From NCBI RefSeq assembly GCF_002112505.1, contig NZ_NEHW01000005.1:186001-250000 (forward strand): a DNA stretch of 64,000 nucleotides, read 5' to 3'. Both the position numbers and the translations under genes were made by a program. The DNA comes from Pseudomonas sp. R28(2017). Its GTDB lineage: Bacteria; Pseudomonadota; Gammaproteobacteria; Pseudomonadales; Pseudomonadaceae. This document shows positions 8,799 to 40,162 of this stretch, piece after piece; position 1 is the first letter of the stretch; every line of letters begins with the position of its first letter. A model generated the notes under the pieces. That model was not told the DNA's origin and ran no database searches. It saw only the letters and a program-made list of their open reading frames with translations.

Positions 8799-10796
8799 TC
8801 ACTCCGCCTGCTCCAACCGTTGGCGATAGGCCCAATCCACGATCCCCCCTTCAGGGCGATAACCGCTGACCACTTCACGTAGAATCTGACGCAGCGCTTT
8901 GTGGTCGCTTCCCTCCACCGCCCGGGCAATTTCCGCCAGGCGATCTTTAAGATCGCCCCAGCTCAGGCAATCTTCGTTGGCTCTCATGATCATCGGGTGC
9001 TGGGTAGACGACACATTGTCACCGATCAGCAGTTCCTCGTAGAGCTTTTCACCTGGGCGCAACCCGCTGAACTCAACTGCGATATCACCATGAGGGTTGG
9101 TGTCGGAGCGCACACTGAGCCCTGACAGATGGATCATCTTTTCTGCCAACGCCACGATTTTCACAGGTTCGCCCATATCGAGCACGAATACATCACCGCC
9201 TTGCCCCATGGAGCCAGCCTGGATCACCAATTGTGCGGCTTCAGGGATTGTCATGAAATAACGGGTGATGCTTGGGTGGGTAACTGTCAGCGGCCCCCCA
9301 GCCTTGATCTGCTTGTGGAACAGGGGAATGACTGACCCTGAGGAACCTAGCACATTGCCGAATCGCACCATGGTGAAACGCGTTTTGCGCACATGCGCGA
9401 CCTTGGCCCGCTCGCCATACAGCACCGGGGCCTGCTCGCTACTCAGGGCCTGAAGCAGCATCTCCGCCAGGCGCTTGGTGCTACCCATGACATTGGTCGG
9501 ACGTACGGCCTTGTCAGTCGAGATCAAGACGAAGTTGGGTACATTGGCTTCCAGTGCCGCCTGAGCAGTATTCAATGTGCCGAAGACATTGTTGAGTACG
9601 CCTTCTGCCATGTTGTGCTCGACCATTGGCACATGCTTGTAAGCCGCCGCATGATAGACCGTGTCCACCCGCCACTGAATGAGCGTATCAACCAGTAATT
9701 GGGGGTTGCGGATCGACCCCAGCAAAGGCACCAGCCGAACAGCCAGCGACTCAACCTGCATCCGATGCTCTAGTTCGGCGTGAATACTGTAAAGGTTGAA
9801 TTCACTGTGTTCGAACAACAATAGCGCTCTGGGCTTGAGCATCAGGATCTGCCGGCAGAGTTCCGAACCGATGGACCCCCCAGCGCCGGTAACCATCACC
9901 ACCTTGCCCTCGATGCAGTGCGCCAGCAGGTCTGCCTGGGCTGGCACGGCGTCGCGCCCCAGCAGGTCGGCAATATCGACCTCCTGGATATCTTCGACCT
10001 TCACCCGACCGCTCGCCAGATCAAGGAAGCTGGGCACACTGCGAACATGCAGCGGGAAAAGTTCGAGTGCGCTTAGTACTTCCCGACGACGAGCCCTGCT
10101 GGCAGACGGTATGGCCAGAAGCACCTGCTCTGCACCTGTAACGTTTATCATGCGCTGGATATCGCTGCCACTAAACACTTGCAATCCAGAGATCGCCCGG
10201 TCAGTGATCGACTCTTCATCGTCGATGAATGCCACTGGGTGCATGGTGCGGCTCATGCGTAAACCTGCCAGCAACTGATTGCCTGCTGCGCCGGCGCCAT
10301 AGATGGCTACCTTCGGCAAACCGTTGTCGCGGCTGGCGAACGGCACATGCTGCCGTGTAGCATACCAATCCCCCAGAAAGTACTGCCGCATGATCAGGCG
10401 CATGCCGCCGACCATCAGAAGGCTCAGCCACCAGTAGTTGAAAATGATCGACCTCGGCACTACAGCACCGTGGCCGCTGCTCCAATATACGACCAATGAC
10501 AGGATCAGCGCCGACAGGCTGACTGCCTTGAAGATGGTGATCAGCGCATCATTGCCAAAATATCGCATCACCGCCCGATAAAGGCCGAAACGAATGAAAA
10601 TCGGGATCGCAAGCAGCGGCGCGGTCAAGAACAACCAAAGATGCCCCTGCAGTGGGTTGTTCAGTTCATCAAGGCCCAAGCGGACGACAAACGCCATCCA
10701 TAATGCCAGCCAGACTAGCCCAATGTCAGTGACAACCTGTAACGCACGCTTGTAGTGACGTGGCAGCGCAAGCAGGCGCTTTCTCAATCTGTCCAT
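8799..10796 (-). CDS. wbpM: Membrane UDP-GlcNAc 4,6-dehydratase, WbpM type (copy 1)
   Basis: A 665-residue protein of the WbpM/FlaA1/CapD group. WbpM removes water from UDP-GlcNAc to give the 4-keto-6-deoxy intermediate for D-QuiNAc and D-FucNAc in O-antigen. Four N-terminal hydrophobic helices (residues about 15-130) precede a first Rossmann fold (VAIYGAGAAGNQL) and the catalytic domain with GAGGSIGSELCRQI, YHAAAYKHVPMVE, ISTDKAVRPTNVMGSTKRLAE. The active site carries Met in place of the usual Tyr (MGSTK), as known for this group. As in P. aeruginosa loci it ends the gene set wbpV-wbpL-wbpM. A near copy lies at 25617-27605. Confidence 0.95.
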   Translation of the reverse strand: MDRLRKRLLALPRHYKRALQVVTDIGLVWLALWMAFVVRLGLDELNNPLQGHLWLFLTAPLLAIPIFIRFGLYRAVMRYFGNDALITIFKAVSLSALILSLVVYWSSGHGAVVPRSIIFNYWWLSLLMVGGMRLIMRQYFLGDWYATRQHVPFASRDNGLPKVAIYGAGAAGNQLLAGLRMSRTMHPVAFIDDEESITDRAISGLQVFSGSDIQRMINVTGAEQVLLAIPSASRARRREVLSALELFPLHVRSVPSFLDLASGRVKVEDIQEVDIADLLGRDAVPAQADLLAHCIEGKVVMVTGAGGSIGSELCRQILMLKPRALLLFEHSEFNLYSIHAELEHRMQVESLAVRLVPLLGSIRNPQLLVDTLIQWRVDTVYHAAAYKHVPMVEHNMAEGVLNNVFGTLNTAQAALEANVPNFVLISTDKAVRPTNVMGSTKRLAEMLLQALSSEQAPVLYGERAKVAHVRKTRFTMVRFGNVLGSSGSVIPLFHKQIKAGGPLTVTHPSITRYFMTIPEAAQLVIQAGSMGQGGDVFVLDMGEPVKIVALAEKMIHLSGLSVRSDTNPHGDIAVEFSGLRPGEKLYEELLIGDNVSSTQHPMIMRANEDCLSWGDLKDRLAEIARAVEGSDHKALRQILREVVSGYRPEGGIVDWAYRQRLEQAE

Positions 10797-10878
10797 TTTC
10801 CCTCTACGATTTCCATGATTTCACCCCCACTTCCCCACTACTCTGCAACTTCCGGGTAGCAGCCTCGCGAGCCGGCGC

Positions 10879-11895
10879 TCAACGCACTTCGGCTTGACCT
10901 GCCTTGAACTTGACCGCCAGCAGGATGAGCGGGGCATAGGCCAGCAAAGTGGCTACCCAACCGTCCATAACATCCAAGGCAACGGCACAGGCCAAGGGCA
11001 GAAGCCACACCAGGTTGATCAAGAGTACGGCCAGCGTGACCGGCAAATGCCGGCCGTACTGGCGAGTGGCAAATTGATACGCGTGACTGCGGTGTGCTTC
11101 GTACACTTTCTCACCTCGCAACAGCCTGTGGATAAGTGTCACGGTCGCATCGACGATGAACACGCCAAGCAGTATCAACCACCCTGGCAATAATTTCGGC
11201 TCGACCCAAGCGGCTTGAAGGGAGAGAACCCCCAGTGCGATACCGAGGAAGCCACTGCCAGCATCGCCCATGAAAATCCGAGCTGGCGGAAAGTTCCAGA
11301 ACAGGAACCCCAGCACCGCACACGCCAGCATCAATGGGCCCCACACCGCCCCGTACGCGCCCACCAGCCAATAGAGCACGGCCCCACCCACACAGGCGCA
11401 AATCGCTTCGACACTGGCCAGCCCGTCGATACCATCCATGAAGTTGTAGAGGTTGAGCAGCCAGACCAGATAGAACAGCGCCAATACATTGCCGATCATC
11501 CCCAGGTCGAAGGTATAACCGAACACACTCAAAGCCGGCAGGCCACCTAGCCAGAACAACACCCAAGCAGCGCCGGCGAAGTGACCCAGCAGACGCCAAC
11601 GCGCTGCGATATGGCCATGATCGTCAAGGAAGCCGAGCACGGCGATACCGGTACCGGCGCCTACCAACGCGCAAGCAGGGCCGCTATCGAGCAAGCCGCT
11701 CCAAGCCATTACCGGCACAGCAAGCAGAAAACCAATCACGATGGCTACCCCACCGCCACGCGGAGTCGGCACGGTATGCGAGCTTCTGGCATTGGGCACA
11801 TCGATGATGCTGCGGGCCAGTGCGTAGCGCCGCAATACGCCGGTCATGCACCAGGTCAGCAGCACCAGCACAGGTAGAATGGACCAGTAGATCAT
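10879..11895 (-). CDS. wbpL: Initiating undecaprenyl-phosphate sugar-1-phosphate transferase
   Basis: A 338-residue polytopic membrane protein of glycosyltransferase family 4 of the WecA/MraY superfamily. It transfers a sugar 1-phosphate (D-FucNAc or D-QuiNAc in P. aeruginosa WbpL) to undecaprenyl phosphate at the cytoplasmic face, starting O-unit assembly. Seen are ARSSHTVPTPRGGG near residue 40, FLDDHGHI, NLYNFMDGIDGLAS with the catalytic Asp cluster, and RIFMGDAGSGFLG. About ten hydrophobic helices are apparent. Its ATG overlaps the stop of the preceding wbpV gene by four bases (ATGA), indicating translational coupling. Confidence 0.95.
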   Translation of the reverse strand: MIYWSILPVLVLLTWCMTGVLRRYALARSIIDVPNARSSHTVPTPRGGGVAIVIGFLLAVPVMAWSGLLDSGPACALVGAGTGIAVLGFLDDHGHIAARWRLLGHFAGAAWVLFWLGGLPALSVFGYTFDLGMIGNVLALFYLVWLLNLYNFMDGIDGLASVEAICACVGGAVLYWLVGAYGAVWGPLMLACAVLGFLFWNFPPARIFMGDAGSGFLGIALGVLSLQAAWVEPKLLPGWLILLGVFIVDATVTLIHRLLRGEKVYEAHRSHAYQFATRQYGRHLPVTLAVLLINLVWLLPLACAVALDVMDGWVATLLAYAPLILLAVKFKAGQAEVR

Positions 11896-12857
11896 GCGCT
11901 CAAACTCTTCAGATATTCATGGGCGGTGAGTTGCAAGGCCTTGTCGACACTGAGTGGAGGGTTCCAGTCGAGCAGGTTTCTGGTTTTGGCAATGTCGACC
12001 TGCAATGAACCACACAACCTCGCCGCCACGCCTGGGCGCCGCAACGCCGCGGCAGCAGCCTTGAGCATGAAGGCCGGGACGGGTAGCAGGAAGGCTTTGG
12101 TACCTAGCGCCTTGGCGGTGCGTTTCAACAGATCGGGCGTTGCCAGATCTTCACCATCACTGACCAAGAACACTTGGTTGGCCGCGCGCGCATGGTGCAA
12201 GCAAACCACGATGAGGTCGACCAGATTGTCCAGGGCAACCATGCTCCGCCGGTTGCGGATAGCCCCCAGCGGCAGTGGCAGCTTTTTGTGCAGGCATTTC
12301 ATCATGGACTGGAAATTGGCCTTAACCCCCGGCCCATAGACCAGCACCGGGCGGATGATCACTACCTGCATGCCGGTTTCGGCAGCCAGTGCGAGCAGTG
12401 CTTGTTCGGCCTCAAGCTTTGAGATGCCGTAAGGGTCCGCAGGTGATGGCTCCTCATCAGCCGAGTAAGGTTGGCGATCGTCAGTACCTTCCCCGTTCAC
12501 CTTGATCGAACTGATGAACACGAAGCGCTGCGCACCTGCTTCGACCGCGCGCCTTGCAAGGTCCAGCGTCCCCTTGACGTTGATTTGCCGAAATTCTGCC
12601 AGGGGCTCCTGAGCAACATCATTCATGATGTGGACACGCGCCGCGCAGTGAATAACGGCATGGATGCCATCAAGAGACGGCAGCTCGTGGCGGCCGTCCA
12701 GCTCACCAGTCAAGAAGGCCTGAGCCCCTGCTGGAAGTGCCTTGCCGATTAGTCGCAAGCCACCGAGCACTTCGATCTCGGGGTTGCGCAGCAGATGCTC
12801 CACCACCCGCGAGCCGACGAAGCCTGTTGCACCTGTAACCAGTACTCGCTGTCTCAC
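11892..12857 (-). CDS. wbpV: UDP-4-keto-sugar reductase / NAD-dependent epimerase, WbpV-like
   Basis: A 321-residue extended SDR. It has TGATGFVGSRVVEHLL at the N terminus, HCAARVHIMND, FISSIKVNGEGT and an intact catalytic YGISK (about residue 147). WbpV of P. aeruginosa O6 reduces the WbpM product to UDP-D-QuiNAc; WbpK in O5 gives UDP-D-FucNAc. Place between a GT4 gene and wbpL, and the shared wbpV-wbpL-wbpM order, support this role. It overlaps both neighbours by four bases. Whether the product is D-QuiNAc or D-FucNAc cannot be read from the sequence. Confidence 0.85.
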   Translation of the reverse strand: MRQRVLVTGATGFVGSRVVEHLLRNPEIEVLGGLRLIGKALPAGAQAFLTGELDGRHELPSLDGIHAVIHCAARVHIMNDVAQEPLAEFRQINVKGTLDLARRAVEAGAQRFVFISSIKVNGEGTDDRQPYSADEEPSPADPYGISKLEAEQALLALAAETGMQVVIIRPVLVYGPGVKANFQSMMKCLHKKLPLPLGAIRNRRSMVALDNLVDLIVVCLHHARAANQVFLVSDGEDLATPDLLKRTAKALGTKAFLLPVPAFMLKAAAAALRRPGVAARLCGSLQVDIAKTRNLLDWNPPLSVDKALQLTAHEYLKSLSA

Positions 12858-13984
12858 TCGTTGCTCTCCAGTGTCCGGTAAACCGCCATATGCTGAGCGA
12901 CAATACTTTCGATGGCAAAGGCACGCTCGGCCAATGCCCGGCCAGCCCTGCCCATGCGCTGGCGCAGCCCTTCATCTTCAAGCAGGCGCTGAATCGCGTC
13001 TGCCAATGCGTATGCATCGCGTACCGGAACCAGCAACCCGGTTACATCAGCCTCGATCGCGTCGCGGCAACCCGGTACATCAGTGGTGACCACCGCGCGC
13101 CCGCAGGCAGCCGCTTCAACCAGCACCTTGGGCAACCCCTCCCGGTACGACGGCAATGTCACGATATGCGATTGCCTTAGCACCTCTGCGACATCGGCCC
13201 GGTAACCCACACAGTCGACTATACCCTCCGCCGCCCAGCGCTCCAGGTCATCGGCGTCGATGCTGGTGGGGTTACCCGGGTCCGGGTCGCCAACTAATTG
13301 GAATGTCGCCCGAACACCACGGCCATCGAGAATGCGCGCGGCCTCGACAAACTCGCTAACACCCTTGTCGCGCAACAGGCGGGCGACCAGGGTGACCACG
13401 GGGGTGCCTGGTGCTTCGGGATATGGCAGATACTGCTGCAAGTCCACACCAGAACCGCGAATCAGCACACTCTTGTCATCGGTAATGGCGCCAATGGCAG
13501 CCAAGGCTTGTTGATCATCCGGGTTCTGAAACACCGCGCGCAGGTTACGCTTACCCAGCGCCACTCGATAGAGTAGCGTGATGATGTTACGCAGGATCGC
13601 CGCCTTTCTACCCCTTGCCATGAACACGAAGCCCAGGCCGGAAATTGCCGCCAGTACACCTTTGACCGGCGAAAGACGCGCAACGATGCCGCCGTACAGA
13701 ACCGGCTTGATGGTGACGATGTGGAGCACGTCAGGCCGCAACCGCCAGCACAGCAGCCATAGTGAAAACAACGCCTTCAACTCGCTGAACGGGTTCTTGC
13801 CACTACGTGTCAGCGAAAGCTCATGGTGCTTGAAGCCGCAACGGGTAATCTCCTCCACTGCCGCGCCATTTCGAGTGGCGACATGTACCTGGTACCCCTG
13901 CTCCCTTGCCGACTCTGCGACAGGCAGCCGGTGAGAAAGGAAGAATGCCGGATCATTGATCACCATCAGTAAAACCGCTTTCAT
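12854..13984 (-). CDS. Family 4 glycosyltransferase
   Basis: A 376-residue GT-B fold enzyme. The start MKAVLLMVINDPAFFLSHRL gives the usual N-terminal Rossmann strand; the frame stays open upstream without homologous sequence. The C-terminal half has TLVARLLRDKGVSEFVEAA, FQLVGDPDPGN, and the nucleotide-sugar binding E-x7-E segment SYREGLPKVLVEAAACGR. It is translationally coupled to wbpV and wbpL, so it likely adds a sugar to the lipid-linked D-QuiNAc/FucNAc made by WbpL, probably as the second residue. Donor and linkage are unknown. Confidence 0.88.
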   Translation of the reverse strand: MKAVLLMVINDPAFFLSHRLPVAESAREQGYQVHVATRNGAAVEEITRCGFKHHELSLTRSGKNPFSELKALFSLWLLCWRLRPDVLHIVTIKPVLYGGIVARLSPVKGVLAAISGLGFVFMARGRKAAILRNIITLLYRVALGKRNLRAVFQNPDDQQALAAIGAITDDKSVLIRGSGVDLQQYLPYPEAPGTPVVTLVARLLRDKGVSEFVEAARILDGRGVRATFQLVGDPDPGNPTSIDADDLERWAAEGIVDCVGYRADVAEVLRQSHIVTLPSYREGLPKVLVEAAACGRAVVTTDVPGCRDAIEADVTGLLVPVRDAYALADAIQRLLEDEGLRQRMGRAGRALAERAFAIESIVAQHMAVYRTLESNE

Positions 13985-14396
13985 GCCACCCCTAATGCCC
14001 TTGAATGATTGGCCCGAAAAATTCTTGCATCGCATTGATGCCTTGAATGACCCTGGCGTATATGGGCCTTGTGGTAACGCTGGCCCTTTGTTCTCCCGCA
14101 CTCTCACGCACAGGTCATTTCCTTCCGGCAGGCAGGTCTGCAGAACAGCAAACTAGGGGCGGATCGACATGTCATTAAGGCAGCCCACGTTGAGAAGGGC
14201 TGCCGGCGTTGACCTGTGATGTACCGTCCATGGCCAGAATTGCCGTGCGTCACGTGCAAATGTTGAAACAGCGAAGCTCTCCACGACCCGATCTTTTGCC
14301 AGCGCGAGCAATACTAACACCAAGTCTGGGTACGCCTTCTGCAAACTGTTGCATCACCCGGCCGGGCGCCCGCGCCGACAACCCAGTTTCACGAGG
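13985..14396. other. Intergenic gap inside the O-antigen cluster
   Basis: About 410 bp lying between the GT4 gene and the WbvB-type dehydratase copy, in a cluster otherwise packed with overlapping genes. I see no homologous coding sequence on either strand, only a hairpin at 14179-14204. It may be the scar of a lost gene. Confidence 0.5.
14179..14204 (-). terminator. Hairpin downstream of the 4,6-dehydratase copy
   Basis: GGCAGCCC (14179-14186) pairs perfectly with GGGCTGCC (14197-14204) around a ten-base loop. There is only a weak T run on the minus strand, so terminator function is tentative. Confidence 0.4.
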
Positions 14397-15407
14397 TCAG
14401 GTGTCGAGTGCCGACCTGACAAATTCGAGTTTCAACAGCAAGGCCTTGATGCCCTCGACATCGAGACGCTCGGTATTGTGGGAAGTGTAATCATCGCCGC
14501 TCGTGATATCCGGCTCGCCTTCGACAAAGTACTTTTTGTAATTGAGGTCACGGTTGTCTGCAGGAATTCGATAGTAACGCCCCATGTCTTCGGACTTGAC
14601 CATTTCTTCGCGGGACAACAGTGATTCATACAGTTTTTCACCGTGTCGCGTGCCGATCACCTTGACCTTTGTCCGCCGCTCAAACAATTGCTGAAGGGCT
14701 TCTGCCAGTTCGCCCACGGTCGAAGCTGGGGCCTTCTGGATAAAGATATCACCCTGCTCGGCATGCTCGAACGCGTGCAGCACCAAGTCTACCGAGTCTT
14801 CAAGCGACATCAGGAAGCGTGTCATTGACGGGTCGGTCACCGTGAGGTGCTCGCCCTGCTTGAGCTGTTCGATGAACAAAGGGATCACCGAGCCTCGCGA
14901 CGCCATTACATTGCCGTACCGGGTCGCGCATACTACGGGCCCACCAACCGGGATTGCCCGGGACTTGGCGACCATTATTTTTTCCGCCATAGCCTTGGAA
15001 ATACCCATGGCATTGATGGGATAAACAGCTTTATCGGTACTGAGCACCACCACCCGTTTCACACCGTTCGCCACAGCGGCGTTCAAAACATTTTCGGTGC
15101 CGATGACGTTGGTCTTAACCGACTCCATCGGATAGAACTCACATGAAGGCACCTGCTTCAACGCGGCTGCATGGAAGACGAAATCGACGCCGACCATTCC
15201 CTGCGCAACACTTTGGTAATCGCGAACGTCACCGATGTGGAATTTGACCTTGTCATTGCCCAAAGCAATGCGCATGTCTTCCTGTTTCTTCTCATCGCGG
15301 CTGAAGATACGAATTTCACGAACACCTGTGTTCAGAAAACGCTTCAGCACGGTATTACCAAAAGAGCCGGTACCGCCGGTGATCATCAAAACCTTGTTAT
15401 CAAACAT
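14397..15407 (-). CDS. UDP-GlcNAc 4,6-dehydratase (5-inverting), WbvB/FnlA/CapE type, copy 1
   Basis: A 336-residue soluble SDR that dehydrates UDP-GlcNAc with inversion at C5, the first step toward UDP-L-FucNAc, UDP-L-RhaNAc or UDP-L-QuiNAc. Seen are TGGTGSFGNTVLKRFL, FHAAALKQVPSCEFYP, LSTDKAVYPINAMGISKAMAEK, and RHGEKLYESLLS. As in the family the usual Tyr is Met. Closely similar to the gene at 37017-38027, with identical blocks throughout and differences mainly at the C terminus. Here it lacks adjacent partner enzymes: a flippase gene lies upstream and a 410-bp gap lies downstream. The reductase and 2-epimerase that would use its product are at 35.9-38.9 kb. Confidence 0.93.
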   Translation of the reverse strand: MFDNKVLMITGGTGSFGNTVLKRFLNTGVREIRIFSRDEKKQEDMRIALGNDKVKFHIGDVRDYQSVAQGMVGVDFVFHAAALKQVPSCEFYPMESVKTNVIGTENVLNAAVANGVKRVVVLSTDKAVYPINAMGISKAMAEKIMVAKSRAIPVGGPVVCATRYGNVMASRGSVIPLFIEQLKQGEHLTVTDPSMTRFLMSLEDSVDLVLHAFEHAEQGDIFIQKAPASTVGELAEALQQLFERRTKVKVIGTRHGEKLYESLLSREEMVKSEDMGRYYRIPADNRDLNYKKYFVEGEPDITSGDDYTSHNTERLDVEGIKALLLKLEFVRSALDT

Positions 15408-18370: not shown

Positions 18371-18903
18371 GGCTTGTTGAAGATCCTTTTATAGGCGTCC
18401 ACTTTCGCCTGGCCATGCAAATGACCGATCTTCAGAGACTTGGCTTGTGCGCGCTGCAAGAAGTCGTCTGTCTGCCCTACCACCCGCGCCGGGTTGCCTG
18501 CAACAATCGCGCCGTCCGCGACTGACCGGGTAACCACCGCATTGGCGCCGACAATGCAATTATTACCGATATTGACGTTGGGCAGAATCAATGCCCCCAT
18601 GCCGATGAAGACATTGTTACCCACAGTAATTTCACCGGCCAATTCCAGGTCTGGTATCTCAGCCCTGAACGGCAAGGTGGCCCCATCATGGCACACGAAA
18701 TGTGCGTTGATACTGATGAAGACATTGTCGCCCAAGGTCACCAGATAAGGCTCGGAGCTAAACATGGCGTAGCTCGAACCATAGATGGTAACGCGCCCTT
18801 TCATATTCACCCCAATGCGTCGGGCATAGGCGCTTGGATCGTAGGCTGCATAGAACCTCCGAAACGGTACAGTGAATACCTTGGAAAGTCTGCCAAGCCC
18901 CAT
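18367..18903 (-). CDS. Hexapeptide-repeat acyltransferase
   Basis: A 178-residue left-handed beta-helix transferase. The repeats run from about residue 35 ([16 protein letters not shown]) through [20 protein letters not shown] and [17 protein letters not shown], ending in the loop [12 protein letters not shown] typical of O-acetyltransferases of the NodL/LacA/WbbJ group. It probably acetylates a sugar of the O-unit in the cytoplasm. One base separates it from the preceding glycosyltransferase gene and it overlaps the next by four, so all belong to one operon. Confidence 0.87.
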
Positions 18904-18904
18904 C

Positions 18905-21198: not shown

Positions 21199-21255
21199 GT
21201 AGGCACCTTTAATTGATATCAATCGAGCAACTGAAAACGACGAGCGCGCACCAAA

Positions 21256-27605: not shown

Positions 27606-28057
27606 CTTCCATCCCCCTGAAACCGTTCCTGAATGCTCTGAATCACACGACCATTATCACTTTAGTGCGATTTTTCACTTACTACCTGCAGCACACCACT
27701 CCCTATCTCGTCGATGAGAGCAGGCGAAAAAGCAAATAAATCTCATTAACATCAACCTCTTATTGTTGGTGTGTGTGCAGACAATAGCAATGAGCGCATC
27801 TGGATAATTAACTGTCATCTGTAGGATTTTTCGACAGATATTGGCAACTGAAGAGAACAATCAATAGGCTCCAGCGGGCCACTATAAAGGCAGAAAGGCC
27901 GAATCACTTCAAGCCGCAACGTCAATACAGGCAAAAAAAACGGATGCACCTCTGGCGATCTGAGTGATGACCAATAGCCATCACCGTCAATCGATCGTGG
28001 ACACGATCAGCAAAACCAAACAGAATCCGCCAATTCAATCAGGTAGCAACAAGCGTC
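27606..28057. other. AT-rich divergent intergenic region
   Basis: About 450 bp between the minus-strand wbpM copy 2 and the plus-strand flippase gene. It is clearly richer in A and T than its surroundings and must hold promoters for both directions. GATAAT on the minus strand near 27652 and TATAAA on the plus strand at 27883-27888 are candidate -10 boxes, but neither has a convincing -35 partner. I see no gene in it. Confidence 0.5.
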
Positions 28058-32032: not shown

Positions 32033-32229
32033 AAGCCCAGAAAGCCCAGAGGCGTGATAGCAGGCCCGATTTTTGATAATTGCATCAAGTATTCGCAATC
32101 AGATCAAAATAATTGTGCACGTTAGCATCACCCGGCTGTCACAGATGAGTTACTCAACTTTCCAAGCCAGCTGCACGTAACGCCATCCGGCAAAACGTGC
32201 CCGGGCATGATCAGGCAGATCCACTCACA

Positions 32230-33591
32230 ATGAAAATTGCTCTTCGGCATCATCGCGTAGGCGCTTCGCTCGATACGGCCCTCTCGCCGTTGTTCGCATT
32301 GTGTGCCTGGATAACGCTACACCCCTATTTTCTCTGGCACTCACTACGCCATATGGCAATTGCCGGCGCGCTATCAGGCTGCCTGGCAATCCTTGCCCTC
32401 ATGCAGGGTGATCGCCCACGCCGAAGGGAGCTGCCCGGTTTCATCTTGATCTGCCTGTTCGTGCTGTACATCAGCATGCTACCCAAAGTCGACGGAAGTA
32501 CTACACGGTGGTATTTCGTATTGCCAACGATTCTGGCCCTGTCAATCTTCTCGGACGAGCGTCGAGGCAAGGTTCTGCAGTGGTTTGGATGGATATTCGC
32601 GGCCAGCCTGGTGCCAGGCATCCTTGTTTCCATAGCGGCCATCCTTGGCGTTGCGCCGCACATGGAACGGATGCCACTGCTCAACCCGGAAATGGCTGCG
32701 CAAGGCGGGGCGTACCTACATGCGCCTGGAGCCCTGCTGCTCTCGGGCAACAACCTCTCGTTGCCTTGGGGCGGTGAACTTTATCGGCTCTGCGCGGTGT
32801 ATGACGAGCCTGGCATGGTTGGCACGATCGCGGCGTTTCTCCTGGCGGGCAATCGGTTCCGCCTCAAGCCTCTGTCATGCCTGGTGATATTCCTCGGGGG
32901 TCTGCTCTCCTGCTCCCTGGCGTTCATCATCATGGCATTCATCGGCTTTGTGTTTCGCTTGCTGTATTCCAGGTCGCTCCTGACGTTACTACCGCTAGCA
33001 GTGCTGGGCCTGTTCGGGCTTCTGATTCTAGGCATCGTCAAACCCAGCGCTCCGCAACCTGTCAGCGAGGTGCATGTCGAAGTGCCCGCGAAGCAGAGAC
33101 AAGTGTCCCCTGCGATTGCAGATGAGCGTACGGCCACCAGCCCCCCTGCTCCTTCCCCCGAACTCGCGCCTACGCCCAAAAATGAGCAACATCTTCGCCA
33201 GGTTCAGTACATCAATAACCGCTCCCTGCCGGAAATGGACAAGTTGCTCGAACGTTATCGCAACGCGGACACCAAAGGCCTGCTTTTTGGTTTAGGCGCC
33301 GATTCCAGCGTTGTCTATGGTGGCGTATCTCAAGTTGTCACACGCCTATTGACCGACTACGGTCTGATAGGCACGTTCTTGTTCGCCGTGAGCATGATCA
33401 GCCTGACCTTCGCCATCATCAGCAATGCCAAGCGCAAGCTATGGGTTCTGCTCTTCTTCGCGTTATTTGCCCTGAGCATCTATCAACGACCCATCGTCTG
33501 GATGCCCTATGCACTGACGATGTTCATTTGCAGTGCCACCTTGGCGGGGAGGCGCAGGTCCGAACCTGCCGCAGTGCACGTTGCAAGCTGA
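32230..33591 (+). CDS. O-antigen polymerase/ligase-like membrane protein
   Basis: A 453-residue protein with about ten membrane helices. The segment YRLCAVYDEPGMVGTIAAFLL is like the D-E-P-G-x-x-G-T motif seen in many exopolysaccharide and O-antigen polymerases. A low-complexity Pro/Ala/Val loop (residues about 272-325) precedes LFGLGADSSVVYGGVSQV and TDYGLIGTFLFAVSMI, resembling the periplasmic loop and following helices of Wzy/WaaL proteins. ATG at 32230 is chosen over a GTG 33 bp upstream. It could be the polymerase for the unit flipped by the neighbouring Wzx, or a ligase; the sequence does not decide. Confidence 0.68.
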   Translation: MKIALRHHRVGASLDTALSPLFALCAWITLHPYFLWHSLRHMAIAGALSGCLAILALMQGDRPRRRELPGFILICLFVLYISMLPKVDGSTTRWYFVLPTILALSIFSDERRGKVLQWFGWIFAASLVPGILVSIAAILGVAPHMERMPLLNPEMAAQGGAYLHAPGALLLSGNNLSLPWGGELYRLCAVYDEPGMVGTIAAFLLAGNRFRLKPLSCLVIFLGGLLSCSLAFIIMAFIGFVFRLLYSRSLLTLLPLAVLGLFGLLILGIVKPSAPQPVSEVHVEVPAKQRQVSPAIADERTATSPPAPSPELAPTPKNEQHLRQVQYINNRSLPEMDKLLERYRNADTKGLLFGLGADSSVVYGGVSQVVTRLLTDYGLIGTFLFAVSMISLTFAIISNAKRKLWVLLFFALFALSIYQRPIVWMPYALTMFICSATLAGRRRSEPAAVHVAS

Positions 33592-33642: not shown

Positions 33643-34770
33643 TCACTTCATCATTGAGCCCGTGCGTAGCAAGCGGGCGAATTGTTGAAGCATCTTTTGT
33701 ACCGTGACAGTCCAGGTGTAGTTCTGCAGTACATACGTTTTGAGCCGCTCACCACGCTGGGGGAGTTCATCAGGCTGAGCCAGCATGCCCTGCAAGCCTG
33801 AAGCGATACCTTCGACACTGGCCGGTACGACCATGCCACCCTGTACCGCTCCGACCTGGTCGAACCCGCACGTATCGGTGAGCAGCACAGGCAGCCCGAC
33901 TACACCGGCCTCAAGTGCTACCAGCGACATCGCCTCGGACCGGGACGGAATGACCAGCATCATCGCCTTTCGGTAAGCAGTCGTCCTCTGCGCCTCATCA
34001 AGAAACCCGATGAAGTGAATCTGACGCTCTAACCCAGACGCATCGACCAGCGCCTTGAGCTCCTTCTGCATGCCAAAGTCCGGCCCAGCCATGACCAGCG
34101 GGTAACGGTGGGCTGCTGGTGTATCAACATATGCCTGAATCAGCAGATCAGGCCCTTTGACGGGCGCCAGCCTGCCCATGAACAGAATGAATGGTTCGTC
34201 GGGAACCAGGGTGCTCACCGCCGATGACTGTTCAGGCTCCACGACTGCATTGCACACAATTGGAATGTCGGCTTCGTCAACACTTGCCACCTTGGCGATC
34301 AATTCTCGCTCGAGGGCAGTGATAGCGATGAAACCTGAGGCAGCCTTTATCAACCACCGTCCTACGCAAAAATGGAAAGCTTTCTTGATCCGCTGCGGCG
34401 AACCGATCGAACTGAACTCACCAGCCGGACACAAGATGAAAGGTCGCCTGCAAGCCATCGCCATGAACCCCATGGCGACGCTCAGAAGGTTCCAGTAGCC
34501 CATGATGTGTATCACGTCAGCCTCACGTATCGAACGCCAAGCTCGCACTGGGTTCAACAACGGCAGCGGAAACCTGCGGCCGACGCAACCCGTGATGTAA
34601 TAGCTCACGCCTTGCGCCTTGAACTCATGCTGCCACGAGTTGCCAGACATGGCCCAAACTTCACAGGCACTCCCGGCTTTTGCCATGTGCACAGCCAGAT
34701 GTCGCGTGCGTTCGGCAGTACCGCCACCCAACTTTGCGTCAAGCGATATATTGACCAGCAAGACTCTCAT
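33643..34770 (-). CDS. Family 4 glycosyltransferase
   Basis: A 375-residue GT-B enzyme. The N terminus MRVLLVNISLDAKLGGGTAER has the glycine-rich acceptor-domain loop; the donor half has FILFMGRLAPVKGPDLLIQA, YPLVMAGPDFG, IHFIGFLDEAQR and the E-x7-E segment IPSRSEAMSLVALEAGVVG. Its start overlaps the stop of the SDR gene at 34767 by four bases, so both are translated together, downstream of the L-sugar synthesis genes. The donor is plausibly the sugar made by those genes, but this is only proximity. Confidence 0.9.
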   Translation of the reverse strand: MRVLLVNISLDAKLGGGTAERTRHLAVHMAKAGSACEVWAMSGNSWQHEFKAQGVSYYITGCVGRRFPLPLLNPVRAWRSIREADVIHIMGYWNLLSVAMGFMAMACRRPFILCPAGEFSSIGSPQRIKKAFHFCVGRWLIKAASGFIAITALERELIAKVASVDEADIPIVCNAVVEPEQSSAVSTLVPDEPFILFMGRLAPVKGPDLLIQAYVDTPAAHRYPLVMAGPDFGMQKELKALVDASGLERQIHFIGFLDEAQRTTAYRKAMMLVIPSRSEAMSLVALEAGVVGLPVLLTDTCGFDQVGAVQGGMVVPASVEGIASGLQGMLAQPDELPQRGERLKTYVLQNYTWTVTVQKMLQQFARLLRTGSMMK

Positions 34771-35899: not shown

Positions 35900-37024
35900 C
35901 TACTTGGACCAGACAGTCCGGTTGATGTAATCGGTGTAGCTGTAGACGATACGCACGACTTGCTTGGATACCGGGCCGCCCAAGTAATCGTCGACTACCG
36001 GGACCACGCGTCGATTGCGATCATGCTGGCTGACAACCACACGCACAGCATCCAGCACACGCTGAGGGGTCAGGCCGCACATGATCAACGTGCCTTCATC
36101 CATGCCCTCTGGACGCTCATGGGCGTTGCGGATGGTAACTGCAGGAAGGTTCAGCAGCGATGCTTCTTCGGTGATGGTACCGCTGTCGGAGAGCACGCAA
36201 CGTGCGCCCATCTGCAACTTGATGTAATCGAGCAAGCCGAATGGTTTGACAAAGCGGATCAACGGATGATCAATCGATTCACCCAGGTCCTCGAGGCGCT
36301 TGCGCGTACGCGGGTGGGTAGACACCACGATCGGGTAGTCATAGGCGTCCGCCAAGGCGCGCAACGACGCCAGCAGATCACGCAGATTCTGTGGCGTATC
36401 GACGTTCTCTTCACGGTGCGTGCTGACAACGAAGTACTGCCCTTCGACCAGACCTTCCCGCTCCAGTACTGTCGACGCGTCGATACGCGGACGGTAGTAG
36501 TTGAGCACTTCGTCCATATGCGAACCGGTCTTGATGATGGTCTCAGGGCGGATCCCCTCGGCCAACAAGTAACGCCGTGCATGCTCGGTGAGCACCATAT
36601 TTATATCGCTAAGGTGGTCAAGTACCTTGCGATTGAGCTCTTCTGGTACACGCTGATCAAAACAGCGATTACCAGCCTCCATGTGGAATACCGGTATCTT
36701 GCGACGCTTGGCTGCAATCACTGCCAAGCATGTGTTGGTGTCGCCGTAAAGCAGCAAAGCATCTGGCTTTTCCAGCTCGAAAATCTCATCGGACTTGGCG
36801 ATCACTTCGGCAATCGTGCCCGCAGCAGTTCCTGCGACCGCACCCAGAAAGTGGTCAGGCTTGCGAATACCCAGGTCATCGAAGAAAACCTGATTGAGTT
36901 CGAAGTCGTAGTTCTGACCAGAGTGCACCAGTACATGATGAGTCTGCTCATCCAGCTCGGCGATGACACGGCTCATCTTGATCAGTTCGGGACGAGTACC
37001 GACCAGCGTCATGACCTTAAGCAT
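35900..37024 (-). CDS. wbvD: UDP-sugar 2-epimerase, WbvD/FnlC (WecB superfamily) type
   Basis: A 374-residue enzyme of the UDP-GlcNAc 2-epimerase superfamily: MLKVMTLVGTRPELIKMSRV, LVHSGQNYDFELN, DALLLYGDTNTCLA, FHMEAGNRCFDQRVPEE, STHREENVDTP, and SDSGTITEEASLLNLPAVT. In UDP-L-FucNAc and UDP-L-QuiNAc synthesis the third enzyme (WbjD/FnlC or WbvD) inverts C2 of the reduced L-sugar. It overlaps the 4,6-dehydratase gene by eight bases and follows the reductase, so the three enzymes are co-translated. The longest gene of the set in agreement with family length (about 375). Confidence 0.92.
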   Translation of the reverse strand: MLKVMTLVGTRPELIKMSRVIAELDEQTHHVLVHSGQNYDFELNQVFFDDLGIRKPDHFLGAVAGTAAGTIAEVIAKSDEIFELEKPDALLLYGDTNTCLAVIAAKRRKIPVFHMEAGNRCFDQRVPEELNRKVLDHLSDINMVLTEHARRYLLAEGIRPETIIKTGSHMDEVLNYYRPRIDASTVLEREGLVEGQYFVVSTHREENVDTPQNLRDLLASLRALADAYDYPIVVSTHPRTRKRLEDLGESIDHPLIRFVKPFGLLDYIKLQMGARCVLSDSGTITEEASLLNLPAVTIRNAHERPEGMDEGTLIMCGLTPQRVLDAVRVVVSQHDRNRRVVPVVDDYLGGPVSKQVVRIVYSYTDYINRTVWSK

Positions 37025-38027
37025 TGAGTTCTTCCTGAATGTAGTCGAGTTTCAGCAGCAGCGCCTTGATACCATCGATATCGAGGCGCTCGGTATTGTG
37101 GGAGGTATAGTCATCCAGCTCGGAGATATGTTGCTCGCCCTCAACAAAATATTTCTTGTAGTTAAGGTCACGGTTGTCTGCGGGAATCCTGTAATAGCGG
37201 CCCATGTCGTCAGCCTTGGCCATCTCCTCGCGGGAAATCAGTGACTCGTAAAGCTTTTCACCATGGCGAGTACCGATAACCTTGACTGTGTTGTCACGCC
37301 CGAACAACTGCTTCAGTGCTTCGGCGAGAGCTTCAACAGTGGACGCAGGAGCCTTCTGCACAAAGATATCGCCCTGTTCGGCATGCTCGAAGGCATGCAG
37401 AACCAGATCCACGGAATCTTCCAGAGACATGAGGAAACGCGTCATGTTCGGATCGGTCACGGTCAATTCACTACCCGACTTCAACTGCTCCACGAACAAC
37501 GGAATCACCGAGCCGCGCGAGGCCATCACGTTACCGTAGCGGGTAGCGCAGATGACCGGGCCGCGGGCGGGAATCATGCGCGACTTTGCAACCATCAGCT
37601 TTTCAGCCATGGCCTTGGAAATGCCCATGGCATTGATCGGGTAGACAGCCTTGTCAGTACTCAATACCACCACCCGTTGCACGCCGCTGGCAATCGCTGC
37701 GTTGAGCACATTTTCGGTACCGATGACGTTGGTCTTGACGGCTTCCATCGGGTAAAACTCGCAGGACGGTACCTGCTTCAGTGCAGCCGCATGAAAAATG
37801 TAGTCGACGCCAATCATCGCCTCGGCCACGCTTTGATAATCGCGGACATCACCGATGTAAAACTTGACCTTGTCGTTGGACAAGGCAATGCGCATATCTT
37901 CCTGCTTCTTCTCGTCGCGGCTGAATACGCGGATTTCTTTCACATTCGTGTTGAGGAAACGCTTGAGCACGGTATTACCGAATGAGCCAGTGCCACCGGT
38001 AATCATCAGAATCTTGTTGTCGAACAC
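37017..38027 (-). CDS. wbvB: UDP-GlcNAc 4,6-dehydratase (5-inverting), WbvB type, copy 2
   Basis: A 336-residue SDR, near-identical in layout to the copy at 14397-15407: TGGTGSFGNTVLKRFL, FHAAALKQVPSCEFYP, STDKAVYPINAMGISKAMAEK, RHGEKLYESLIS. It makes the 4-keto L-arabino intermediate from UDP-GlcNAc. Here it is flanked on the same strand by its expected partners, the RmlD-like reductase (21 bp upstream) and the 2-epimerase (8-bp overlap). This is therefore the copy within an intact pathway. Confidence 0.94.
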   Translation of the reverse strand: MFDNKILMITGGTGSFGNTVLKRFLNTNVKEIRVFSRDEKKQEDMRIALSNDKVKFYIGDVRDYQSVAEAMIGVDYIFHAAALKQVPSCEFYPMEAVKTNVIGTENVLNAAIASGVQRVVVLSTDKAVYPINAMGISKAMAEKLMVAKSRMIPARGPVICATRYGNVMASRGSVIPLFVEQLKSGSELTVTDPNMTRFLMSLEDSVDLVLHAFEHAEQGDIFVQKAPASTVEALAEALKQLFGRDNTVKVIGTRHGEKLYESLISREEMAKADDMGRYYRIPADNRDLNYKKYFVEGEQHISELDDYTSHNTERLDIDGIKALLLKLDYIQEELNA

Positions 38028-38048: not shown

Positions 38049-38909
38049 TTATTGACGCTGTGCGTGCATGAATTCGATGAGTGCACGCCAGGAGGGCGGC
38101 GTGTAACCTGTCGCTGCTCGGAACCGGGAGGAATCGAGCGAACGGTCGATCACCAGTCTGTCATCGGGCACGATCTCGATGTCCTTCTCATAGACGTCTG
38201 CGACTGTTTTGAGCAGCTCATATTTGTTGATCGGCTCAGCAGACACATGGTAAAGCCCTTTCAATGAAGCATCAGGGATAACATGCTCCAAAATCACTCT
38301 GGCCAGTTCGGCAGTGGGCAGTCCCGAGAAGATGGCCTTGTTGAACCCCTTGACGCTGCCTTGCTGAGCAAGGAACCAGTCGATCAGCGAAGCGCTGCTC
38401 TGCAATTCATGCCCGATGATGGAGGTCCGCAGGGTCACCACGTTATCACAGCCATGCAATTCGCCGATGTACTTCGACTTACCGTACAGGTCGGTGCAGT
38501 CTGACTCATCCTCCTCCCGATACATGCCCTTATCCCCAGAAAACACGCAATCGGTGCTGACATGAATCAGGCGGGCACCAGAGACCTGGCACAAAGTTGC
38601 CAGGCGGTGCGGGAGCATGGCGTTCAGGGGCAGGGCTGTCAGTGGGTCTTTGGCATCGGCAAGCTGCTTGATCAAACCTACGCAGTTGATCACGACATCC
38701 GGTCGAGACTTGACGAATGCGGCCATCAGGGCATCGGGATCAAGGACATCCACACCTGACAGCAGGAAGTCGGCCTGCTGCGGAGGGAAGAACTTGCGTC
38801 CGAAATCTGAGCGCAAAGTGCCATAGACCTGATGAGTGGAGTTGGCCGAGATATACCGGATTACGGCATTGCCCAGCATGCCCGTTGCGCCCAATACCAA
38901 TATCTTCAT
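38049..38909 (-). CDS. wbvR: RmlD-like UDP-4-keto-L-sugar reductase, WbvR type
   Basis: A 286-residue SDR resembling dTDP-4-dehydrorhamnose reductase: KILVLGATGMLGNAVIRY, DVVINCVGLIKQLADAKDP, IHVSTDCVFSGDKGMY and an intact YGKSKYIGEL. The protein is about 85 residues shorter than FnlB/CapF/WbjC, which carry a C-terminal cupin domain, so it fits WbvR, the 4-reductase of the UDP-L-QuiNAc route in Vibrio cholerae O37. With the neighbouring dehydratase and 2-epimerase the likely product is UDP-L-QuiNAc rather than UDP-L-FucNAc. Its ATG overlaps the stop of the preceding GT gene by one base. Confidence 0.88.
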   Translation of the reverse strand: MKILVLGATGMLGNAVIRYISANSTHQVYGTLRSDFGRKFFPPQQADFLLSGVDVLDPDALMAAFVKSRPDVVINCVGLIKQLADAKDPLTALPLNAMLPHRLATLCQVSGARLIHVSTDCVFSGDKGMYREEDESDCTDLYGKSKYIGELHGCDNVVTLRTSIIGHELQSSASLIDWFLAQQGSVKGFNKAIFSGLPTAELARVILEHVIPDASLKGLYHVSAEPINKYELLKTVADVYEKDIEIVPDDRLVIDRSLDSSRFRAATGYTPPSWRALIEFMHAQRQ

Positions 38910-40162
38910 TACTGTGTTTTATCCTGTTGAATCCGTTGTTCGAACTTCTGTACCAGCGCCTTGCATTGGGCGCGCAGTTCAAAATGTTTCAGAAAGTAGC
39001 TTCTTCCGTGGTTACCCATCTGCTCACGCTTGGCGGCAGACAGGCCTTGAATTGACTCTATACATGCGGCCAGCCCCGCGCCGTCTTCAGCTGCACAGGT
39101 TACGCCGGCACCTGAATCGTTGATCACCCGAGCGCCCTCCCCATCCAGCGAGCCGATAATCGGCCGTCCTGCAGCCAGGTATGCCTGTACCTTGCTGGGA
39201 ATCGTACAACCAAAAATCTCGTCTCGCTTCAGTGTCACCAGCAACGCGGCACTACGGTCGAAGAGTTCGGCCATTGCAGAGCGGGGGAAAGCACCAGTGA
39301 TCACCAGGTTATCCAGGCCCAACCTGTGTTTCTCCTCCAACAACCATTGTGCTTTGCTGCCCGTGCCGACCATTACAATCCTCGCAGGCGAGTTTGACGC
39401 TTTCAGCAACCGTGCCGCTTCGACGACGGTAGCCAAACCCTGAGCATTCCCCAGGTTACCGGCAAACACCACACAGAAATGAGCCTGCAACAGGCTTGTG
39501 AGTGTATCTGGCAATGCTCCCACCGCCCGGACATCATCCTGGAGATAGGAGTTGGGGTAGTAGCTGATCTTGTCAGCACGCGCGTAACGCCTGACAGGCT
39601 CGATAAAGGCTCGAGACTGCACGAGAATAGCATCGACAGACCAGTAGAGGCCACGAACCAGCACACCAACGAGGCGCAGCAGCAGCTTGTTGTGAATGAA
39701 GCCGGTCGCCTCGAGGCTCTCCGGCCACAGATCCTGCACCCACAGGAAAACCGGTGCACGATGAACCCGTTTCATTGCCAACGCTGGAATCACGGAAAGG
39801 ATTGGGGAAGGCGCAAAGACGAAATAGATATCAAATTTTCCACGCCTGGCCTTTTTCCTGAAGTAGCGGGCACCGTTGAAAACAAAAGACCAGTAATTGA
39901 GAATGAGATTCTTTGCACCACCCTGTTTACGCGGACGAAGCGGCACGCGATGAACAGTGACATCGTCACCAAATCGTTCCTCTACACACCCCTGTGCCTG
40001 ATAACCAGGAAAAATCTCACCACTTGGGTAGTTGGGCTTGCCGGTGAACACCTCAACGTGAACGCCTAACGCCGCCAACTCCTTAACTATTTCGTTAATA
40101 ATAAAGTTTTCTGGAAAGAAATACTGGCTTACAACAGCAACTTTCAATGAGGTTCGCGTCAC
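38909..40162 (-). CDS. Family 4 glycosyltransferase, WbuB-like
   Basis: A 417-residue GT-B enzyme read from GTG at 40162, which has AAGGAAA seven bases upstream. LKVAVVSQYFFPENFIINEI, FTGKPNYPSGEIFPGY, WVQDLWPESLEATGF and the C-terminal FGCTIPSKVQAYLAAGRP with IIGSLDGEGARVI are typical of WbuB, the L-FucNAc transferase of E. coli O26, and its relatives. As the first gene of the L-sugar operon it most likely transfers L-QuiNAc or L-FucNAc. It is followed by wbvR with a one-base overlap. Confidence 0.9.
   Translation of the reverse strand: MTRTSLKVAVVSQYFFPENFIINEIVKELAALGVHVEVFTGKPNYPSGEIFPGYQAQGCVEERFGDDVTVHRVPLRPRKQGGAKNLILNYWSFVFNGARYFRKKARRGKFDIYFVFAPSPILSVIPALAMKRVHRAPVFLWVQDLWPESLEATGFIHNKLLLRLVGVLVRGLYWSVDAILVQSRAFIEPVRRYARADKISYYPNSYLQDDVRAVGALPDTLTSLLQAHFCVVFAGNLGNAQGLATVVEAARLLKASNSPARIVMVGTGSKAQWLLEEKHRLGLDNLVITGAFPRSAMAELFDRSAALLVTLKRDEIFGCTIPSKVQAYLAAGRPIIGSLDGEGARVINDSGAGVTCAAEDGAGLAACIESIQGLSAAKREQMGNHGRSYFLKHFELRAQCKALVQKFEQRIQQDKTQ

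What the first reader, a model, noticed from the sequence alone, without database searches (positions are those of the whole stretch)
8799..40162. A composite O-antigen island with two stacked gene sets, each ending in wbpM
Read on the minus strand from the ihfB side, the canonical O-antigen order (sugar synthesis and glycosyltransferase genes, ending in wbpM) occurs twice: once from 40.2 to 25.6 kb and again from 25.4 to 8.8 kb. Flippase, polymerase-type, Wzz and WbpM functions are all represented more than once (two flippases of different branches, three polymerase-type proteins, two Wzz, two WbpM). Such doubling in one strain could give two O-antigens, one O-antigen with side branches, or a locus in transition between serotypes.
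Basis: partly seen in the sequence, partly recalled or inferred. Interest (0 to 1): 0.78.

Follow-up and report, generated by a model that had tools for sequence, protein, structure and literature searches.

The report
Two fused, interdependent O-antigen gene sets
A Pseudomonas genome carries two surface-sugar gene sets, which relatives carry singly, joined end to end; each joined set has lost genes that only the other still has, so both probably now work only as a pair.

Summary
The doubling is real. Two O-antigen gene sets lie in tandem between ihfB and rmlB, each ending in an intact wbpM (76% identical).

Relatives explain it. Set B (25.6-40.2 kb) is the single ihfB-wbpM locus of P. capeferrum WCS358 and G163, where wbpV and wbpL precede wbpM. 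Set A (8.8-25.4 kb) is the single locus of G376 and, as far as its contig reaches, G311, with a full fnlA-qnlA-qnlB trio (names by homology). In the window B lacks wbpV-wbpL and A lacks qnlA and qnlB: reciprocal loss, no remnants found. P. faucium has the same stack; 2 of 398 sampled genomes, the window's included. All 24 genes are under purifying selection between the two (omega 0.007-0.205).

Best reading: halves that depend on each other, sharing one initiating transferase (WbpL) and one L-QuiNAc route, probably making two O-polysaccharides. Chemistry is untested. One WbpL serving two O-polysaccharides is known in P. protegens; my searches found no report of reciprocal loss in one stacked locus.

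The parts
8799..10796 (-). set A: wbpM1 (membrane UDP-GlcNAc 4,6-dehydratase)
   Evidence: PF02719 409 bits; in a 12-row clade (100/100) that holds A-only relative G311; omega 0.044
10879..11895 (-). set A: wbpL, the only WbpL match of the genome (initiating glycosyl-phosphate transferase)
   Evidence: PF00953 121 bits; genome scan finds one other PF00953 protein, which I read by eye as MraY; one WbpL match at E<=1e-5
11892..12857 (-). set A: wbpV-like 4-reductase
   Evidence: PF01370 122 bits; same place in G376, G127, G015; name from synteny and recall
12854..14107 (-). set A: glycosyltransferase gtA1 (GT4)
   Evidence: PF13692/PF00534; 60-76% in G376, G127, G015, 39% in G311
14397..15407 (-). 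set A: lone fnlA (UDP-GlcNAc 4,6-dehydratase/5-epimerase), without qnlA/qnlB beside it
   Evidence: FnlA model 557 bits, below cut-off 730; residues 1-332 of 336 aligned to 4j2o; groups with G311 and G376 FnlA; omega 0.048
15528..17036 (-). set A: wzxA, MurJ/MATE-type flippase
   Evidence: PF03023 183 bits; 56% and 47% in G311 and G376
17033..18370 (-). set A: wzyA, putative polymerase (445 aa, 8 hydrophobic segments)
   Evidence: no family; relatives beside wzx in G311 and G376; segments
18367..18903 (-). set A: hexapeptide acyltransferase
   Evidence: PF00132
18905..20116 (-). set A: glycosyltransferase gtA2
   Evidence: PF13692 28.7 bits, just above cut-off 27
20176..21222 (-). set A: wbpP/TviC-type UDP-HexNAc(A) 4-epimerase
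   Evidence: NF011728 526 bits, below cut-off 760
21256..22677 (-). set A: wbpO/TviB-type UDP-GlcNAc 6-dehydrogenase
   Evidence: NF011729 704 bits, above cut-off 592
22789..24195 (-). set A: second Wzz/GNVR chain-length protein (wzz2)
   Evidence: PF02706 and PF13807
24294..25358 (-). set A: wzz1 chain-length determinant
   Evidence: PF02706 67.5 bits; next to ihfB in A-only G376
25359..25616 (.). junction between the sets (wbpM2 end to wzz1 start)
   Evidence: matches only G278/P. faucium among loci L025-L053
25617..27605 (-). set B: wbpM2
   Evidence: PF02719 411 bits; 7-row clade (100/99) with the B-only WbpM, G057 and one G340 copy; omega 0.040
27606..28057 (.). site where wbpV-wbpL stand in B-only relatives; now 452 bp, no remnant found
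28058..29431 (+). set B: wzxB, MATE-type flippase
   Evidence: PF01554 20.8 bits, below cut-off 24.9; 10 hydrophobic segments
29421..30329 (+). set B: glycosyltransferase gtB3 (GT2)
   Evidence: PF00535 110 bits
30371..32032 (+). set B: 553-aa membrane protein, most likely Wzy (stands with wzxB and gtB3 also in G137)
   Evidence: no family
32197..33591 (+). set B: 464-aa membrane protein, second polymerase- or ligase-like candidate
   Evidence: no family; not found in the 40-kb stretch of G137
33643..34770 (-). set B: glycosyltransferase gtB2 (GT4)
   Evidence: PF00534 95 bits
34767..35711 (-). set B: SDR-type sugar reductase/epimerase (sdrB)
   Evidence: PF01370 55 bits
35900..37024 (-). set B: qnlB/fnlC-type UDP-HexNAc 2-epimerase (only close copy in the genome)
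   Evidence: TIGR00236 243 bits, above cut-off 210; second genome match only 32%
37017..38027 (-). set B: fnlA
   Evidence: FnlA model 576 bits, below cut-off 730; groups with B-only FnlA
38049..38909 (-). set B: qnlA, RmlD-type reductase (only close copy in the genome)
   Evidence: TIGR01214 101 bits, below cut-off 224, no match to the WbjC model NF047837; second genome match 35% over 101 residues
38909..40213 (-). set B: glycosyltransferase gtB1
   Evidence: PF13579/PF13692
41727..42023 (-). ihfB, boundary gene
   Evidence: TIGR00988 173 bits

Best explanation
Two alternative, normally single O-antigen loci were joined in tandem at the ihfB site: B next to ihfB, then A. Redundant copies were then lost reciprocally: B lost wbpV-wbpL, A lost qnlA and qnlB. 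The halves now lean on each other. WbpL (with WbpV) of A is inferred to start the O-units of both sets on undecaprenyl phosphate with a D-QuiNAc/FucNAc-type sugar made through WbpM. QnlA/QnlB of B, with either FnlA, are inferred to supply UDP-L-QuiNAc to both sets. Each set keeps its own glycosyltransferases, flippase and polymerase candidate, so the likely output is two O-polysaccharides on one cell, with the Wzz proteins of A available to both. Shown: the two sets in tandem, the missing genes, one WbpL, one QnlA and one close QnlB in the genome, and purifying selection on both halves. Inferred: the order of events, the sugars, the sharing of enzymes, and two separate polymers.
For: Set B is the whole ihfB-wbpM locus, with wbpV-wbpL, in WCS358, G163 and G072:C74. 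Set A with a full qnlA-fnlA-qnlB trio is the locus of G376 and G311. FnlA_A groups with FnlA of G311 and G376 (95/99) and FnlA_B with that of WCS358, G163 and G072:C74 (94/89); WbpM2 lies with the B-only WbpM plus G057 and one G340 copy (100/99), WbpM1 in the other large clade; the window's WbpL lies outside the clade of the B-only WbpL. No remnant of the missing genes found in six gaps. One WbpL, one QnlA with only a 35% partial second hit, one close QnlB with a second hit at 32%. Same stack in P. faucium/G278. Omega 0.007-0.205 and no stops in 24 of 24 genes, while four flank ORFs that I take for non-coding frames give 0.98 to 9. The four lost genes all have a partner kept in the other half (four random single losses: 240 of 20475 = 0.012; one adjacent pair plus two singles: 192 of 8450 = 0.023). 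Precedent: deletion of wbpL in P. protegens CHA0 removes both OSA and OBC3 O-polysaccharides (PMC10715155, passages), and single-gene mutants in Pf-5 OBC4 or OBC5 affect the other polymer (PMC9213528, passages).
Against: No expression, LPS gel or sugar data. A-only G311 lacks WbpL, so not every A-type relative has wbpV-wbpL; its contig ends before wzz1 and ihfB. The WbpM of A-only G376 falls in the WbpM2-side clade, and the window's WbpV is a long branch of weak placement, 76/94. In WCS358 the wbpV match comes in two overlapping pieces, so that copy may be frameshifted in the draft. A PF02397 transferase exists on contig C19 and could in principle start one unit. The loss statistic rests on parental gene lists that I set up (wzz2 is not seen in G376) and is modest. 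WbpV copies outside the window were not searched. The lone fnlA of set A, conserved although both neighbours are gone, is not explained by simple redundancy.
Confidence: 0.6

Rival explanations
1. One polysaccharide needs both sets: one set builds the backbone and the other adds side branches or a second block, so the stack is a single serotype locus.
For: Shared WbpL and shared L-QuiNAc route; the stack is kept whole in two species; no wzz in set B.
Against: Each set keeps its own wzx and polymerase candidate, each under purifying selection, and each set alone fills the ihfB site in other species. A branch pathway would not need a second Wzx/Wzy pair.
Confidence: 0.2
2. The halves are independent: the missing functions are supplied otherwise (set B is started by the PF02397 transferase on contig C19 or needs no WbpV; the lone FnlA of A feeds another L-sugar through a different reductase).
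For: The PF02397 protein exists; fnlA_A is kept without its partners at omega 0.048; the window's WbpV is very divergent from the others.
Against: The C19 transferase sits among ORFs that look like a polysaccharide cluster of their own, judged from ORFs only, without a family search; B-only relatives carry wbpV-wbpL inside the set.
Confidence: 0.15
3. Serotype locus in transition: one half is silent or decaying after a recent insertion.
For: An MBL-fold gene between ihfB and set B has decayed; in three other genomes with doubled wbpM the second copy is broken or partial (G046, G178, G337).
Against: No stop and omega at most 0.205 in 24 of 24 genes against G278; dS 0.175-0.253 is near the background of nearby genes.
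Confidence: 0.05

Closest known systems
OSA (Wzx/Wzy-type) O-antigen locus between ihfB (himD) and wbpM in Pseudomonas
   Same: site, boundary genes, wzz/wzx/wbpL/wbpM content of set A (PMC6804347 and PMC13101481, passages)
   Different: two sets in the slot, two wbpM, and the genes missing from each set are present only in the other
P. capeferrum WCS358 O-antigen biosynthetic locus
   Same: the genes of set B in the same order and on the same strands (locus described in PMC4509608, passages)
   Different: WCS358 has wbpV-wbpL in front of a single wbpM and no set A
Two co-displayed O-polysaccharides that need WbpL in P. protegens CHA0 (OSA + OBC3); shared proteins proposed for OBC4/OBC5 in Pf-5
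   Same: one WbpL needed for two O-polysaccharides; cross-dependence of clusters (PMC10715155, PMC9213528, passages)
   Different: there OBC3 lies at its own site (between aer_2 and a CPBP protease gene); here two OSA-type sets share one site and show reciprocal loss against single-set relatives
Nine other sampled Pseudomonas genomes with two close intact wbpM (G079, G129, G205, G210, G281, G290, G314, G340, G341)
   Same: second wbpM within 12 kb; one WbpL in 7 of 9, none in 2
   Different: no second set with both a flippase and a polymerase candidate seen between the wbpM genes (judged by ORFs of 150 aa or more and hydropathy)

Membership tests
Wzx/Wzy-type OSA locus (set A) | lies in the ihfB-wbpM slot, ends with wbpL-wbpM | tested here: met
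   same frame in G376, G127, G015
Wzx/Wzy-type OSA locus (set A) | Wzx flippase and Wzz present | tested here: met
   PF03023 183 bits, PF02706
Wzx/Wzy-type OSA locus (sets A and B) | Wzy polymerase | tested here: inconclusive
   multi-spanning proteins only; no Pfam family even at E 10; model of the 553-aa protein weak (pLDDT 54) and without fold match at E<=0.001; model of the 464-aa protein useless (pLDDT 34); the 445-aa protein was not modelled
Self-sufficient O-antigen locus (set A alone) | complete set of sugar enzymes seen in single-locus relatives | tested here: not met
   qnlA and qnlB absent from set A; only close copies lie in set B
Self-sufficient O-antigen locus (set B alone) | own initiating transferase | tested here: not met
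   no PF00953 or PF02397 match in set B; wbpV-wbpL missing compared with WCS358, G163 and G072:C74
Self-sufficient O-antigen locus (set B alone) | Wzx flippase | tested here: inconclusive
   MatE 20.8 bits against cut-off 24.9, 10 hydrophobic segments
OBC3-type second O-antigen cluster | second cluster at a separate chromosomal site | tested here: not met
   both sets lie between ihfB and rmlB
UDP-L-FucNAc route (FnlA-WbjC/FnlB-FnlC) | WbjC-type reductase of about 372 aa | tested here: not met
   the 286-aa reductase of the window, and those of G376 and WCS358, have no NF047837 match; the 372-aa protein of G046 scores 719 bits
UDP-L-QuiNAc route (FnlA-QnlA-QnlB) | FnlA + RmlD-type reductase + C2-epimerase | tested here: met
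   family-level matches in set B, only the epimerase above its cut-off; route as described in PMC6467956 and PMC9614988 (passages); activity not tested
Two O-polysaccharides on one cell | two O-chain populations | not testable with these tools
   needs LPS gels and NMR

The most novel reading that the evidence does not exclude
A stable, fused O-antigen locus held together by reciprocal gene loss: neither ancestral serotype can be made without genes of the other half, so a cell that takes the whole stack gains two O-antigens at once, while exchange of one half alone (the usual route of serotype switching) would cripple both.
Probability: 0.4. Interest if true: 0.72.

Novelty: new variant of a known kind. 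Interest (0 to 1): 0.56.

Why it matters
O-antigen loci are usually pictured as alternative cassettes swapped at one site. Here two cassettes seem to have become one inseparable unit, with complementary losses readable against living single-cassette relatives. It makes testable how a cell shares one initiating enzyme, one lipid carrier and one chain-length control between two polymers, and whether interdependence protects a double serotype from being broken up. O-polysaccharides are receptors for a phage and a tailocin in P. protegens (PMC10715155, PMC9213528, passages), so two on one cell would matter for host range.

Tried and rejected
Chance or artefact: rejected, because the stack lies inside single contigs in the genomes of two species.

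Recent insertion moved as one block by horizontal transfer: my first reading (locus dS 0.175-0.253 against pyrF 0.76, rmlB 0.42, ihfB 0.485). Dropped as unproven after more flank genes were added (aroA 0.24, gyrA 0.24, 62213-63145 0.20, the acyltransferase at 1106 0.19).

L-FucNAc as product of the trio: replaced by L-QuiNAc after the WbjC model failed on the window's reductase and hit a control.

Remnants of lost genes in six gaps: apart from two matches (E 1.6e-8 and 3.4e-5) that lie in the padding holding the start of fnlA, nothing reached E 0.005 or better except one tblastn hit of the G163 WbpL at E 0.005 in the wbpM1-rmlB gap, which I take for chance.

ops/JUMPstart element (motif recalled): GGCGGTAG with up to one mismatch gave 75 matches against a mean of 51 in shuffles (1 of 100 shuffles reached 75); none of the seven exact matches lies in the intergenic stretches upstream of the sets. 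Promoter-like (7 against 9.1) and terminator-like sites (19 against 16.9) were near the shuffled means.

Structure route for the B membrane proteins: models too weak, fold search of one without a match, no PDB relatives.

Family trees of FnlC and RmlB did not finish. G072 is probably a mixed assembly (7% contamination, two ihfB loci); I did not count it as a stack, but used its contig C74 as a B-only example. G333 and G389 are one wbpM in pieces.
Full report
WHAT IS THERE. The window is G000:C37:186001-250000 of a 5.99-Mb genome; that it is a Pseudomonas of the P. putida kind is inferred from its named relatives. Between ihfB (41727-42023) and rmlB lie two O-antigen gene sets. Set A, all minus strand: wzz1, wzz2, wbpO, wbpP, gtA2, acyltransferase, wzyA, wzxA, fnlA, gtA1, wbpV, wbpL, wbpM1. 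Set B: gtB1, qnlA, fnlA, qnlB, sdrB, gtB2 on minus; wzxB, gtB3 and two membrane proteins on plus (28058-33591); then wbpM2 on minus. Gene names follow homology and gene order; wbpV, wbpO and wbpP are partly recalled usage.

EACH HALF EXISTS ALONE. A protein search with the 464-aa membrane protein of B found two named genomes: P. faucium BML-PP048 (92%) and P. capeferrum WCS358 (71%). With the 553-aa protein, 17 of 398 sampled genomes of the genus match; besides the window only G278, G072, G163 and G137 match in one piece over most of its length (47-92%), the other 12 partially or in pieces at 23-35%. In WCS358, G163 and G072:C74 set B is the whole locus: ihfB, gtB1-qnlA-fnlA-qnlB-sdrB-gtB2, the convergent four-gene block, then wbpV-wbpL-wbpM. 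G163 has one further ORF (412 aa, 9 hydrophobic segments) after gtB2, and in WCS358 the wbpV match comes in two overlapping pieces, perhaps a frameshift of the draft. WCS358 and G163 have a single wbpM. With the set-A polymerase candidate, 6 of 398 match; besides the window and G278 (96%), G311 and G376 (68% and 61%) carry set A alone with a full qnlA-fnlA-qnlB trio, and two more match at 25-26%. G376 also has gtA1-wbpV-wbpL-wbpM; G311 has no WbpL match and its contig ends before wzz1 and ihfB. G127 and G015 show the outer frame of set A (ihfB, wzz1, wzz2, wbpO, wbpP ... gtA1, wbpV, wbpL, wbpM, pyrF) around other middles. Only the window and G278 match both polymerase queries: 2 of 398. G278 and the P. 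faucium record match at identical positions, so I treat them as one genome.

RECIPROCAL LOSS. Against these relatives, B in the window and in P. faucium lacks wbpV-wbpL (452 bp remain between wbpM2 and wzxB in the window), and A lacks qnlA and qnlB on either side of its retained fnlA (gaps of 120 and 289 bp). Sensitive searches of six gaps found no remnant. The genome holds one WbpL match; the only other PF00953 protein reads by eye as MraY. It holds one QnlA with a 35% partial second hit, and one close QnlB with a second hit at 32% on contig C19, beside ORFs that recall an nfrAB-type cluster (from ORF layout and recall, no family search). One PF02397 transferase lies on C19. WbpV copies outside the window were not searched.

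ORIGIN OF THE PARTS. Trees: WbpM2 lies in a 7-row clade (100/99) with the B-only WbpM, G057 and one G340 copy. WbpM1 lies in a separate 12-row clade (100/100) with G311, G127 and others. FnlA_A lies with G311 and G376 (95/99), FnlA_B with WCS358, G163 and G072:C74 (94/89). The window's WbpL groups with G127 (95/76), apart from the clade of WCS358, G163, G072:C74 and G057 (99/97). Against a tidy story: the WbpM of G376 falls on the WbpM2 side, and the window's WbpV is a long branch with weak placement (76/94; WCS358 was too short to enter). The FnlC and RmlB trees did not finish.

AGE AND SELECTION. Between the window and G278, 24 of 24 genes of the two sets have no stop, with omega 0.007-0.205 and dS 0.175-0.253. 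Flank genes give dS 0.19-0.76. Left out of that range are rpsA (0.058, which I put down to codon bias) and four ORFs that I take for non-coding frames after seeing their omega of 0.98-9. The stack is therefore about as old as the species split, or a little younger, and both halves are maintained, including the lone fnlA of A (0.048). Whether it was inherited vertically or exchanged early is open.

HOW RARE. wbpM is present in 387 of 398 genomes; 21 of 398 give more than one match (three candidates per genome were scored there, so 21 is a lower bound). Of the 21, 11 have two intact copies within 20 kb on one contig (G000, G278, G079, G129, G205, G210, G281, G290, G314, G340, G341). The other 10 are far apart (G018), on two contigs (G026, G284, G370, and the mixed G072), broken or partial (G046, G178, G337) or one gene in pieces (G333, G389). 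Of the 21, 18 have one WbpL, one has two (G284, 86% complete) and two have none (G129, G340). ORF maps of the nine other close pairs (ORFs of 150 aa or more, hydropathy only) show no second set with both flippase and polymerase candidates between the wbpM genes. G079 has eight ORFs there, one multi-spanning, and two wbpL fragments. G281 and G314 have a protein of 612-619 aa with 10 hydrophobic segments, and G314 also an acyltransferase-like one with 6.

FUNCTION. Set A: a 6-dehydrogenase above its cut-off and a TviC-type epimerase below it point to a HexNAcA sugar. Both single-locus types have FnlA with an RmlD-type reductase and a WecB-type epimerase. The reductases of the window, G376 and WCS358 fail the WbjC model that a control from G046 passes, so UDP-L-QuiNAc (FnlA-QnlA-QnlB; PMC6467956 and PMC9614988, passages) is more likely than UDP-L-FucNAc. 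The O-antigen of WCS358 was reported to contain glucose and quinovosamine (De Weger 1987 as cited in PMC4509608; original not read), which would fit a QuiNAc-containing set B; but PMC4509608 itself finds the locus not clearly related to those sugars and doubts so simple a composition (passages). FnlA_A aligns over 332 residues with the solved enzyme 4j2o and with CapE. The polymerase roles are inferred from topology and synteny only; in G137 the 553-aa protein stands with wzxB and gtB3 while no relative of the 464-aa protein was seen in the 40-kb stretch, so the former is the likelier Wzy.

COMPARISON WITH THE LITERATURE. One WbpL serving two O-polysaccharides is known (P. protegens CHA0, PMC10715155; P. 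aeruginosa OSA and CPA, PMC6804347), and shared proteins between two clusters were proposed for Pf-5 (PMC9213528); all from passages. P. gelidaquae strains can carry a second O-antigen cluster at a separate site, and 43 related strains had their OSA variant between ihfB and wbpM (PMC13101481, passages). Searches for doubled wbpM, two O-antigen clusters or two wzx/wzy listed nothing that I recognised as a stacked ihfB-wbpM locus with reciprocal loss; most listed papers were not opened, and the library lacks most subscription papers.

VERDICT. A tandem of two allelic O-antigen loci that has probably become interdependent by complementary gene loss, kept intact in two species. The genetics are strong; that it makes two O-antigens is likely but untested.

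Noticed in passing
window 40214-41400: Decayed copy (with stops) of an MBL-fold protein gene (name recalled from its HxHxDH-type motif) between ihfB and set B; an intact 475-aa ORF stands at that place in WCS358, and only pieces match in G278.
   Followed up: partly
window 40544-40625 and 40870-40951: 82-bp inverted repeat, 90% identical, 244 bp apart, next to a run of GGCAA units upstream of set B. Whether it is invertible was not tested.
   Followed up: no
window 47.1, 49.4, 52.6, 55.3, 56.2, 59.7 and 63.2 kb: Recurrent palindromic repeats related to each other, REP-like (name recalled).
   Followed up: no
window 7877-8512 (-): Putative small lipoprotein (by eye) between wbpM1 and rmlB, no family match, conserved in G278 with omega 0.095.
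   Followed up: partly
G205, G210, G281, G290, G314, G341 (L108-L112, L114): wbpL followed by two wbpM genes; the six copies next to wbpL form a divergent clade of their own (branch 0.42, 100/100), a second wbpM type kept beside the usual one.
   Followed up: partly
L128 (G189:C1:786000-805999), 8403-10379: wbpM lies inverted next to ihfB instead of at the far end of the locus.
   Followed up: no
G072 contigs C74 and C75 (L033-L036): Two ihfB-wbpM loci of different type on two contigs and 7% contamination: probably a mixed assembly.
   Followed up: partly
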